From the NCBI RefSeq assembly GCF_025979705.1, contig NZ_CP110136.1:3162001-3226000 (forward strand): DNA of 64,000 nucleotides. The letters are read 5' to 3'. The stretch is from Hymenobacter sp. YIM 151858-1 (GTDB lineage: Bacteria; Bacteroidota; Bacteroidia; Cytophagales; Hymenobacteraceae). The notes below the pieces were generated by a model that did no database searches, was not told the origin of the DNA, and saw nothing but the letters and a program-made list of their open reading frames with translations. Shown one piece after another: positions 32,501 to 33,836 of the stretch (positions are counted from its first letter, which is position 1; every line of letters starts with the position of its first letter). A program made the position numbers and the translations under genes.

Positions 32501-33333
32501 CCCTGCTCAAGCGCATCATCGATGAAAAGCTGCTTACGGCCCGTGCTACGGTAGGCTTCTGGCCGGTTAATACCGTCGACTCCGACACAATTGAGGTATA
32601 CACCGACGACACCCGCGAGCAGTTACTGGCCGAAACCTTCACGCTGCGTCAGCAAAGCCTGAAGGCACCGGGCCTGCCGTACTTCGCCTTCTCCGATTTC
32701 CTGGCTCCTAAGGACAGCGGCCGCGCCGATTACCTAGGCGGTTTTGCCGTAACGGCGGGCATCGGGCTTGATGAGCTGGTGGCCGAGTTCGAGGCGCAGC
32801 ACGACGACTACTCGGCCATTCTGGCCAAAGCCCTGGCCGACCGCCTGGCCGAAGCCCTGACCGAGCGCCTGCACGAGCGGGTGCGCCGCGAGCTGTGGGG
32901 CTACGCGCCGCAGGAGCACCTCTCCAACGAAGACCTTATCAAGGAAGAGTACCGCGGTATTCGCCCCGCCCCGGGCTACCCCGGCTGCCCCGATCACACC
33001 GAGAAGATTACCTTGTTCCACCTGCTCGGCAACGGCCAAACCGGCATCAGCCTCACCGAAAACCTGGCCATGTACCCCACGGCTTCGGTGAGCGGCTTCT
33101 ACTACGCCCACCCCGATTCGCGCTACTTCGGCCTAGGTCGAATTGGCAAAGATCAGGTAGAAGACCTGGCCCGCCGCAAAGGCATGCCCTCTGCCGAGCT
33201 GGAGCGCTGGTTGTCGCCTAACTTGAACTACGATGTGGCCTCACCCCCCGGCCCCCTTCCCTCGCTAGATGCGCGACATGGGGGAGAGGGGGAGCCTAAA
33301 GTCAACGTTGTTGCAGTTACAACTGCGCAGTAG
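29527..33333 (+). CDS. metH: Cobalamin-dependent methionine synthase
   Basis: A 1268-aa cytosolic enzyme that methylates homocysteine from methyl-tetrahydrofolate through cobalamin. All four modules are present: homocysteine-binding with zinc cysteines ([23 protein letters not shown]), pterin-binding ([16 protein letters not shown]), cobalamin cap and B12-binding ([15 protein letters not shown], Asp767 and His769 of the DxHxxG motif) and the SAM-dependent reactivation domain ([20 protein letters not shown]). The family normally ends soon after PNLNYD; here translation runs through an interspersed repeat, adding about 29 foreign residues ([20 protein letters not shown]..). A palindrome also sits in the linker before the cap domain. 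Controlled by the upstream SAM riboswitch and paired with metF downstream. Confidence 0.96.
31450..31479. repeat. Small palindrome inside metH linker
   Basis: GCTAATAGC (31450-31458) and GCTATTAGC (31471-31479) are exact complements around CAACAGCTGACA. It is translated as part of [12 protein letters not shown], in the poorly conserved linker between the pterin and cobalamin-cap modules. Confidence 0.8.
33237..33297. repeat. Left flanking palindromic repeat (inside metH)
   Basis: CCTCACCCCCCGGCCCCCTT, a loop with CTCGCTAGATGCGCGACATG, then GGGGGAGAGGGGGAGCC. The loop is 18 nt longer than in the right copy. It is read through as the last residues of MetH. Confidence 0.85.
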
Positions 33334-33346
33334 TTACAGCTTTTGC

Positions 33347-33751
33347 GTGGACGCACCAGACCCAAAGCAGGACCGGCTAACCGCTGATCAGAAGCGGTGG
33401 CACACTCGGCTGAAGACATTCAGCGGGGAGATGCGGCGTAATCCGACGTCGGCCGAAGACGCTTTGTGGCAAGCATTGCGCAACCGGCAGCTCAACGGAG
33501 TAAAGTTTCGGCGGCAGCATGCTATAGGCAACTTTATTGTTGACTTCATCAGTACCGATCATCAGCTCATTATTGAAGTCGATGGCGACATGCACGCCGA
33601 GCGCAGCCAAGCCCAGTACGACCTAGGTCGCAGTTACGAGTTAGCCACCGCCGGCTACCGCGTGTTGCGCTTCATCAACGAGCAAGTGCTCAGCACCCTT
33701 TCTGCTGTTTTGCAAACCATCCGCGAAGCCTTGGCTTTGCCTCAAGAATAA
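33347..33751 (+). CDS. DUF559 endonuclease-domain protein (Vsr-like fold)
   Basis: A 134-aa protein (GTG start at 33347) of the DUF559 family, related to Vsr mismatch endonucleases and the PD-(D/E)xK superfamily. The core is complete: RRNPTSAEDALWQALRNRQL, KFRRQHAIGNFIVDF (Asp66), LIIEVDGDMHAE (Glu77, Asp79, His83), and GYRVLRFINEQVL. Biochemical role of the family is not established; sporadic spread suggests mobility. An ATG at 33269 would add 26 residues but overlaps metH by 65 nt inside the left repeat, and the added part is not family-like. Lies between inverted repeats, 13 nt after the metH stop and 88 nt before metF. Confidence 0.85.
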   Translation: MDAPDPKQDRLTADQKRWHTRLKTFSGEMRRNPTSAEDALWQALRNRQLNGVKFRRQHAIGNFIVDFISTDHQLIIEVDGDMHAERSQAQYDLGRSYELATAGYRVLRFINEQVLSTLSAVLQTIREALALPQE

Positions 33752-33793
33752 ACCAGCCACCACAATCCTGACTCCCCCCATTCGCTAATCGTC

Positions 33794-33836
33794 AGGCTCC
33801 CCCTCTCCCCCGGAGAGGGGGCCGGGGGGTGAGGCC
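33794..33836. repeat. Right flanking palindromic repeat (before metF)
   Basis: AGGCTCCCCCTCTCCCCC then GGAGAGGGGGCCGGGGGG and TGAGGCC; inverse copy of the left repeat without its long loop. It covers the region where the metF translation signal would be. Confidence 0.85.

What the first reader, a model, noticed from the sequence alone, without database searches (positions are those of the whole stretch)
33237..33836. A 600-bp REPtron-like unit: DUF559 nuclease gene between perfectly inverted palindromes, inserted in metH-metF
Seen: a DUF559 (Vsr-like) nuclease gene is flanked by two inverted copies of one GC-rich palindrome; outer ends are 21-bp perfect complements. The unit sits exactly between metH and metF, runs into the metH coding end and stops 3 nt before the metF ATG. 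A solo copy of the palindrome is at 5699-5735. Known: REP palindromes are mobilised by RAYT transposases flanked by inverted REPs; DUF559 genes are sporadic and of unknown role. Inference: this is an analogous unit in which a Vsr-like nuclease spreads or maintains the palindrome, an undescribed kind of mobile module.
Basis: partly seen in the sequence, partly recalled or inferred. Interest (0 to 1): 0.85.

Follow-up and report, generated by a model that had tools for sequence, protein, structure and literature searches.

The report
Palindrome-bounded Vsr-like nuclease mobile element
A small DNA-cutting gene framed by two mirrored DNA hairpins looks like the founder copy of an unrecognised kind of mobile DNA in bacteria; in the genus studied, hairpin-only copies are common mainly where the matching nuclease is present.

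Summary
In eight genomes of the genus, all 18 full-size DUF559 genes have flanking inverted hairpin repeats (one arm degenerate in two); a divergent nineteenth does not. Three hairpin families (A, B, C) go with different nuclease groups. Hairpin counts are higher where the cognate nuclease is present (A 4-44, B 38-65, C 10-24) than where it is absent (A 0, B 0-11, C 0-1) or broken (C 2). Many copies are nuclease-free inverted pairs.

Across bacteria, 51 of 76 testable DUF559 loci have strong flanking inverted repeats, against 3 of 513 control positions; only 1 of 10 loci read from a plasmid collection did. In Bacteroidota units also sit in frame inside genes for MetH, LeuRS, RecG and HsdR, without intein domains where tested. 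Seven relatives lack a DUF559 at metH-metF. RAYT-like genes of the genus have other palindromes. The protein folds like the homing endonuclease I-Bth0305I and Vsr and is under purifying selection.

Best reading: a REPtron-like autonomous/non-autonomous system driven by a Vsr/EDxHD nuclease instead of an HUH transposase. Association and copy-number link are shown; movement by the nuclease, and its mechanism, are inferred.

The parts
33237..33297 (+). Left palindrome, family A: outer tail GGCCTCACCCCCCGG, then a hairpin with an enlarged loop; read in frame it now codes the C-terminus of MetH
   Evidence: outer arm 23 nt perfect complement of the right end
33269..33751 (+). Open frame of the DUF559 (Vsr/EDxHD-like) nuclease; probable start GTG 33347
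   Evidence: (PF04480 E 1.6e-35); the start is inference
33407..33733 (+). DUF559 catalytic domain; invariant E63, D92, E103, D105, H109 (ORF numbering from 33269)
33794..33836 (+). Right palindrome, family A, inverted copy: hairpin of stem 10, loop 3, then the tail CCGGGGGGTGAGGCC
29527..33333 (+). metH; its native C-terminal codons were replaced when the unit came in
33840..34796 (+). metF, starting 3 nt after the right palindrome
5698..5735 (+). Solo family-A palindrome (tail plus hairpin); by eye a decayed copy stands at the syntenic place in G004, none in G005

Best explanation
The 600-bp unit is the autonomous member of a REPtron-like mobile family: one gene for a small Vsr/EDxHD-type nuclease between two inverted hairpin palindromes that serve as the element's ends. 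The nuclease acts, also in trans, on palindromes of its own family; nuclease-free inverted pairs and solo palindromes are the non-autonomous members. Proposed mechanism (inferred): the nuclease nicks or cuts DNA at the hairpin ends (as hairpin or cruciform) and/or at the target, and host repair pastes or copies the palindrome-bounded DNA into the break. This replaces a short stretch of target (about 25 nt in the helicase gene, about 90 nt at metH-metF) and leaves no target duplication that I could see. The same sites are hit repeatedly, as in homing. Because the palindromes read through in frame ([20 protein letters not shown]), units survive inside host genes. Shown: anatomy, families, pairing of nuclease group and family, copy-number link, conserved ends, purifying selection, empty sites. 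Inferred: movement by the nuclease and every biochemical step. My estimates: nuclease and palindromes form one functional system, 0.9; the nuclease drives dispersal, 0.75; the cut-and-repair route in particular, 0.4.
For: Flanking inverted repeats (score 16 or more) in 51 of 76 DUF559 loci of named genomes vs 3 of 513 shifted positions. Hairpins of stem 7 or more on both sides: named set 58 of 75 vs 43 of 805; genus 16 of 19 vs 0 of 38; phylum top hits 22 of 26 vs 4 of 52; long-frame set 26 of 40 vs 11 of 239. Nuclease groups follow hairpin families with 2 changes, the minimum; 0 of 200 shuffles as low; families co-occur within genomes. Hairpin counts follow the cognate nuclease: A 22, 6, 44, 41, 4, 30, 14 with vs 0 without; B 57, 46, 38, 65 with vs 0, 3, 11, 1 without; C 10, 24 with, 2 broken, vs 1, 0, 1, 0, 1 without; reversed-pattern controls all 0 (counts include the units' own ends). 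Exact ranks, with the broken C counted as present: 1 of 8, 1 of 70, 1 of 56 assignments. Nuclease-free inverted pairs: 16 of 45 gaps between B copies of G004 are under 600 bp, 2 of them at the unit itself; random mean 0.30; 20 pairs read. Ends are the best conserved part of the unit: 86 of 87 invariant palindrome columns vs 123 of 190 in spacers (two more sets). dN/dS 0.02-0.16 in 14 of 16 pairs. Arms share their central 7 nt: 0.88 within units vs 0.41 between, 0 of 2000 permutations (arms were picked by mutual alignment, which favours this). Empty sites: metH-metF and the helicase, where host flanks are nearest to empty genomes in all 14 windows for both carriers. Fold: I-Bth0305I and Vsr.
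Against: No movement, cleavage or binding was observed. Of 10 loci read from 38 plasmid-collection hits only L231 passes: E. coli (2), Azospirillum (4), Sinorhizobium L230, Synechocystis L232 and N. gonorrhoeae L233 do not; L005 in the own genome does not either. In the named set 25 of 76 fail the inverted-repeat test, and in the phylum top set only 13 of 29 loci reach score 16 (900-nt flanks). Sequences of other genera fall among the A-family nucleases and family B is not one clade. Long-range covariation of nuclease and palindrome is weak (rho 0.15 without Hymenobacteraceae). Eight of 170 Bacteroidota genomes without a strong DUF559 have 5 or more hairpins of the counted type, and G003 has 11 B hairpins without a B nuclease. 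Most units found sit at sites shared by related species; no burst of near-identical nuclease copies at unrelated sites was found. Vsr-type nucleases do not join DNA (established knowledge), so host enzymes must. Purifying selection also fits a host function.
Confidence: 0.72

Rival explanations
1. RAYT (Y1 HUH) transposases or another transposase mobilise the palindromes, and DUF559 is a passenger gene caught between two of them.
For: Y1_Tnp matches are present in 6 of 8 genus genomes; the anatomy is like a REPtron's.
Against: Of 8 Y1_Tnp loci read (13 matches), 6 have inverted repeats of their own with other sequences (such as GTAGCGCGGACTTTGTAGTCCGCG and GGTACTACGACTCCAAAGTCGTAGTACC) and none is flanked by an A, B or C hairpin; single A half-stems occur near L181 and L183. 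G006 and G007 have no Y1_Tnp match but carry flanked DUF559 units and 30 and 14 A hairpins. Copy number follows DUF559 type. Other transposase families were not searched.
Confidence: 0.06
2. A homing endonuclease gene pure and simple: the nuclease cuts an empty allele at a specific site and is copied in by repair; the palindromes are only tolerated, in-frame linkers and not its substrate.
For: Sequence and fold kinship with I-Bth0305I. Repeated insertion at one spot of the helicase gene in G000, G003 and G173. Same positions in LeuRS, MetH and RecG of different genera. Five of nine genus sites lie at DNA replication, repair or dNTP genes: AddA-like helicase, sbcDC, uvrD/pcrA, dnaX, nrdAB (enrichment not tested).
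Against: Palindromes are the most conserved part of the unit, go with nuclease groups, and exist as dispersed nuclease-free pairs whose number follows the nuclease.
Confidence: 0.14
3. A resident repair or genome-maintenance nuclease (very-short-patch-like or palindrome-processing) whose gene is bracketed by its own binding sites; not mobile now.
For: dN/dS 0.02-0.16. A Caulobacter DUF559 protein, VsrA, is SOS-induced and is responsible for the DNA damage response seen when a cytosine methyltransferase is missing (PMC12907096, passages).
Against: Presence and absence between close relatives, in-frame presence in unrelated genes, dispersed nuclease-free pairs.
Confidence: 0.12
4. The hairpins are only bidirectional terminators or mRNA stabilisers that happen to surround small genes.
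For: GC-rich hairpins, many between genes.
Against: Control positions in the same contigs mostly lack them; they occur inside coding sequence; Rfam finds no known family at its threshold in 5 loci, and in the window stretch only a sub-threshold mir-484 match.
Confidence: 0.02

Closest known systems
REPtrons: RAYT (REP-associated tyrosine transposase) genes between inverted REPs, with REPINs (definition recalled; papers seen as listings and abstract starts)
   Same: One small nuclease gene between inverted palindromes; enzyme groups go with palindrome families; nuclease-free inverted pairs (89-529 bp apart for B in G004); a short tag beside the hairpin.
   Different: Enzyme is a Vsr/EDxHD nuclease, not an HUH/Y1 transposase; the tag is about GGGGTGAGG; units also sit in frame inside genes; RAYT-like genes with other palindromes live in the same genomes.
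I-Bth0305I and EDxHD homing endonucleases; Vsr endonuclease
   Same: Same fold; kinship to 3r3p (E 2e-4; Foldseek 3e-5); invariant E, D, ExD, H.
   Different: No intron or intein found where tested; a single short domain, while I-Bth0305I is described as a long multi-domain enzyme (PMC3943268, passages); bounded by palindromes.
Rickettsia palindromic elements (RPE)
   Same: Palindromes inserted in frame within protein genes (PMC3733652, passage).
   Different: No nuclease is mentioned in the passage seen; sequences were not compared.
RIME repeats of rhizobia (named in PMC2573895 and in a reference title of PMC2873474; passages)
   Same: S. meliloti L231 has a pair of palindromes on each side of its DUF559; the query around it matches 481 places in 157 plasmid records, 156 of them Rhizobiaceae by genus name, mostly over the palindromic arms in the listed rows.
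   Different: That these repeats are RIME is recalled; no published RIME sequence was compared.
Neisseria NGO0050 (PDB 3hrl), a DUF559 protein of solved structure
   Same: Closest solved structure (E 7e-36).
   Different: Function unknown; flanking repeats in L233 score only 13, below the cut-off, possibly decayed.

Membership tests
REPtron (RAYT plus REPs; definition recalled) | Y1 HUH transposase (PF01797) | tested here: not met
   Pfam finds DUF559 and a sub-cut-off MTES_1575 match only
REPtron (RAYT plus REPs; definition recalled) | Gene between inverted palindromes with dispersed cognate copies | tested here: met
REPtron (RAYT plus REPs; definition recalled) | GTAG or CGTC tag next to the hairpin | tested here: inconclusive
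   Tails were read; a G-rich tag is in 45 of 57 units vs 32 of 283 control hairpins, with a pattern written after seeing the tails. GTAG and CGTC were not counted; CGTC stands near some A hairpins
EDxHD / Vsr nuclease superfamily | Fold and conserved acidic/His residues | tested here: met
Homing endonuclease gene | Lies in an intron or intein (free-standing ones also exist) | tested here: not met
   No intein or Hint domain in 8 host proteins; no Rfam match at threshold in 5 loci
Homing endonuclease gene | Cuts the empty allele and is copied into it | not testable with these tools
   Repeated same-site insertion is suggestive
Insertion sequence | Transposase plus target-site duplication | tested here: not met
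   No transposase domain; two resolved sites show replaced target and no duplication by eye
Rickettsia palindromic elements | In-frame insertion in coding genes | tested here: met
Rickettsia palindromic elements | Sequence kinship | not tested
   RPE sequences were not compared
RIME | Sequence identity with published RIME | not tested
   Only repeat abundance was seen

The most novel reading that the evidence does not exclude
DUF559 nucleases define a separate, cross-phylum class of bacterial mobile element: a Vsr/EDxHD nuclease mobilises hairpin palindromes tagged about GGGGTGAGG, as autonomous palindrome-nuclease-palindrome units and as non-autonomous inverted pairs, colonising operon joints and, in frame, essential genes. 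It would be the missing mobiliser of several orphan palindromic repeat families, possibly including rhizobial RIME.
Probability: 0.65. Interest if true: 0.94.

Novelty: categorically new. Interest (0 to 1): 0.9.

Why it matters
It would give a role to DUF559, a common nuclease family (126 of 296 Bacteroidota genomes at E 1e-15 or better) that Pfam lists as of unknown function. It would give an owner to abundant orphan palindromes and show that REP-type genome parasites arose more than once with unrelated enzymes. It also shows nuclease cassettes living in frame inside LeuRS, MetH, RecG and other core enzymes without a recognisable splicing domain. The copy-number/nuclease pairing within one genus makes the question directly testable.

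Tried and rejected
RAYT as the mobiliser was tested and largely rejected. Insertion into a pre-existing solo palindrome of the same family was considered: the metH-metF gaps of G001, G004 and G005 and the helicase sites of 6 empty genomes show none, so it was not kept; note that the metH-metF gaps of G002, G006 and G007 carry other palindromic repeats and that of G003 a C pair. Transfer of the helicase unit with its host flanks between G000 and G003 was rejected, since in all 14 windows each is nearest to an empty genome. L132/L137 first looked like one unit at two sites, but the upstream gene ends also match by eye, so it is no evidence of movement. Strain-level presence/absence through plasmid records gave nothing usable. 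Phages: 3 weak hits. Defence library: weak homing-endonuclease and DpdF matches only. Long-range covariation is weak. Composite repeats around solo palindromes were not resolved. Enrichment of DNA-metabolism genes among sites was noted, not tested. Literature: nine searches (14 papers hold 'DUF559') showed no listing that links DUF559 with palindromes. Only open-licence PubMed Central papers are held; listed papers were seen as titles and abstract starts, and five as passages.

Full report
OBSERVATION. The unit rewrote the end of metH: the native C-terminus of relatives (NYEPTAAEPVAAAN and the like) is replaced by residues coded by the palindrome ([24 protein letters not shown]...), and about 90 nt of native end and gap are gone. 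In all seven other genomes of the genus metH-metF has no DUF559. G001, G004 and G005 have short gaps without these hairpins, G002, G006 and G007 carry other palindromic repeats there, and G003 carries an inverted pair of a different hairpin family without a nuclease (read by eye).

THE GENUS. One search covered 8 genomes and gave 22 DUF559 matches: 18 full-size and strong, the divergent L005, and 3 weak ones in large proteins (not counted further). All 18 have flanking inverted repeats of score 16 or more (one search lists all 18; one arm is degenerate in L001 and L021); L005 shows none by eye. Three hairpin families occur. A is GGCCTCACCCCCCGGCCCCCTCTCC-loop-GGAGAGGGGGAGCC. B is AACTAGTTCCCCTCCTCAGATGAGGAGGGGCTAGGGGTGGTTGA. 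C is CCCCTCCTTTTTGAAGGAGGGGACGC...GCTGGGGTGGTT. On the nuclease tree the three labels need 2 changes, the minimum, and 0 of 200 shuffles did as well. A is cut off from B and C by a supported branch (99/98) and C is a supported group (100/99), but B is not one clade (C lies within it), and six of the seven sequences added from other genera fall among the A rows. Families co-occur in one genome (G000 A and B; G001 and G003 A and C; G004 B and C; G005 and G006 A and B), so shared host ancestry does not explain the match. The 18 genes represent about nine sites (judged from flank homology).

COPY NUMBER FOLLOWS THE NUCLEASE. Exact-pattern counts per genome (reversed-pattern controls all zero; the units' own ends are included, for instance 2 of the 6 A hairpins of G001): A 22, 6, 44, 41, 4, 30, 14 in the seven genomes with an A nuclease and 0 in G004 without one; B 57, 46, 38, 65 with and 0, 3, 11, 1 without; C 10 and 24 with an intact C nuclease, 2 in G004 whose C nuclease has an internal stop, and 1, 0, 1, 0, 1 without. 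With the broken C counted as present, the observed rankings are the most extreme of 8, 70 and 56 assignments. The eight genomes are not independent, but near relatives differ: G004 against G005 for A, and G006 against G002 and G007 for B. Many copies form inverted pairs without a nuclease. In G004, 16 of the 45 gaps between neighbouring B copies are under 600 bp, two of them at the nuclease unit itself (random mean 0.30, maximum 2 in 1000 draws), and in all 10 pairs with informative loops the polarity is the same. Twenty pairs from G002, G003 and G004 were fetched and read. One intergenic site carries a B pair in G004 (L240) and an A pair in G003 (L252).

BEYOND THE GENUS. Of 76 with enough flank, 51 have inverted repeats of score 16 or more, against 3 of 513 shifted positions in the same contigs. 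In the 69 units passing that test (51 named, 18 genus), 123 of 138 arms hold perfect hairpins of stem 7 or more, against 119 of 1479 random windows. Hairpins on both sides within 300 nt: named 58 of 75 vs 43 of 805 controls; genus 16 of 19 vs 0 of 38; phylum top hits 22 of 26 vs 4 of 52 (3 of 29 loci left out because the contig end shifted them); long-frame set 26 of 40 vs 11 of 239 (some phylum and long-frame loci are the same places). By the inverted-repeat score the phylum top set does less well, 13 of 29. The two arms of a unit share the central 7 nt (51 units, mean identity 0.88, against 0.41 between units; 0 of 2000 permutations); since arms were chosen by mutual alignment this is biased upward. 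A G-rich tag of the type GGGGTGAGG stands next to the hairpin on one side, mostly outward in Bacteroidota and mostly toward the gene in Pseudomonadota. A pattern written after reading the tails finds it in 45 of 57 units and 32 of 283 control hairpins, so this figure is descriptive.

PHYLUM CENSUS. In 296 Bacteroidota genomes, at least one CCCTCTCC-loop-GGAGAGGG hairpin occurs in 62 of 126 genomes with a strong DUF559 (E 1e-15 or better) and in 19 of 170 without (without the large family f17: 61 of 121 and 19 of 111). Only this hairpin type was counted, and no phylogenetic correction was made. Eight genomes without a strong DUF559 have 5 or more copies, which goes against a strict link.

UNITS INSIDE GENES. 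In the listing (150 rows, capped), 43 matches lie in open frames of 300 residues or more; 40 of these were fetched and read. Hosts, by clustering: LeuRS (7 loci, two positions), HsdR (6), MetH (4, one linker), RecG (4), coproporphyrinogen oxidase (3, N-terminal), UvrD/AddA-like helicase (2, besides G000 and G003), IcmF mutase (2), and others, some at gene ends. Eight host proteins were checked with Pfam and eight, overlapping, with NCBIfam: DUF559 sits between or before normal host domains, and no intein or Hint domain is listed. The palindromes appear as peptides such as SPSPSGRG and LPLGEDLGEG. In the helicase gene G000 and G003 hold units at the same spot while six genomes are empty. For both carriers the nearest genome in each of 14 flank windows is an empty one, so the spot was invaded twice, or the unit was transferred with very little flank. 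G173, of another genus, has a unit at the same place. The unit replaced about eight or nine codons of a variable linker.

THE ENZYME. AlphaFold2 on a 54-sequence alignment predicts the domain well (ten-residue blocks from residue 41 on 76-97; the first 40 residues poorly; mean 79.5). Foldseek: 3hrl E 3e-8, the homing endonuclease I-Bth0305I E 3e-5, Vsr E 3e-3. A profile search of PDB sequences agrees (3hrl 7e-36, 3r3p 2e-4). E63, D92, E103, D105 and H109 are invariant in the 54. dN/dS is 0.02-0.16 in 14 of 16 pairs, 2 saturated; all but L032/L033 share their site, and several pairs have dS above 1. The ends are the best conserved part of the unit: 86 of 87 invariant palindrome columns against 123 of 190 in the spacers and 255 of 318 in the nuclease gene (4 species). 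In two further sets palindromes also beat spacers (Dyella/Rhodanobacter, 3 of 4 relatives used: 65 of 76 vs 35 of 75; sbcDC: 69 of 99 vs 60 of 249); in the sbcDC set the coding flanks (439 of 600) are as well conserved as the ends.

MECHANISM. The evidence says that nuclease and palindrome belong together and that palindromes are more numerous where the nuclease is. A Vsr-like nuclease can break DNA but not join it (established knowledge), so I infer cutting at the hairpin and/or the target followed by host repair that copies or captures the palindrome-bounded DNA. Replacement of about 25 to 90 nt of target and repeated use of the same spots fit a break-and-repair route better than transposase strand transfer. 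Which strand, hairpin or duplex, and whether the target is recognised, is unknown.

RIVALS. Y1_Tnp matches exist in 6 of 8 genus genomes. Six of the eight loci read carry inverted repeats of their own with unrelated sequences, which is also a positive control for the method. G006 and G007 have no such match but have flanked units. Other transposases were not searched. Homing without a role for palindromes, and a resident repair role, remain possible in part; the only DUF559 protein with a studied function found here, Caulobacter VsrA, is a suspected mismatch-repair nuclease that may cause DNA breaks (PMC12907096, passages).

COMPARISON. It works like a REPtron but is not one, since the defining Y1 transposase is absent. 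Its enzyme belongs to the EDxHD/Vsr superfamily, but no intron or intein was found where tested. It resembles Rickettsia palindromic elements in its in-frame insertions (PMC3733652, passage). In Sinorhizobium (L231) the unit has a pair of palindromes on each side, and the query around it matches 481 places in 157 plasmid records; that these are the RIME repeats named in PMC2573895 and in a reference of PMC2873474 (passages) is recalled, not tested. No paper linking DUF559 with palindromes was seen in searches, which cover open-licence PubMed Central only.

LIMITS. Named loci are the best-scoring 80, not a random sample. Of 10 loci read from 38 plasmid-collection hits, 9 do not pass the inverted-repeat test: E. 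coli L224 and L225, Azospirillum L226-L229, Sinorhizobium L230, Synechocystis L232 and N. gonorrhoeae L233. L005 is unflanked too. No movement was seen.

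Noticed in passing
G000:C1:697570 (L003) against L021 and L022: The B-type unit stands in opposite orientation in G000 compared with G004/G005 at the same site, as if inverted between its ends.
   Followed up: partly
L240 (G004) and L252 (G003): The same intergenic site carries a nuclease-free B pair in one species and an A pair in another; metH-metF shows the same kind of reuse (A unit in G000, C pair in G003).
   Followed up: partly
L004, L024, L031, L032 and their same-site relatives: Units sit between genes read as sbcD and sbcC (Pfam: metallophosphatase and AAA_23), after uvrD/pcrA, beside dnaX and between the ribonucleotide reductase genes. 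SbcCD is the cell's hairpin nuclease (recalled). A bias like that of inteins was not tested.
   Followed up: partly
L033 (G004:C1:2300280): The C-type nuclease of G004 has an internal TAA, and that genome has only 2 C hairpins.
   Followed up: yes
window 5600-5860 and L006, L013, L018, L019: Solo A palindromes lie inside larger composite repeats (GTCATCCTGACGCAGGAAGGACCTTA, GTCATGTCGAGCGCAGTCGAGACATCTCGCG) that look like further repeat families.
   Followed up: no
L233 (Neisseria gonorrhoeae): Weak, possibly decayed hairpins of the same layout (score 13) stand around the DUF559 gene of the kind solved as 3hrl.
   Followed up: no
L176, L177, L179-L182: Six RAYT-like loci of the genus carry inverted repeat arrays of their own.
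   Followed up: partly
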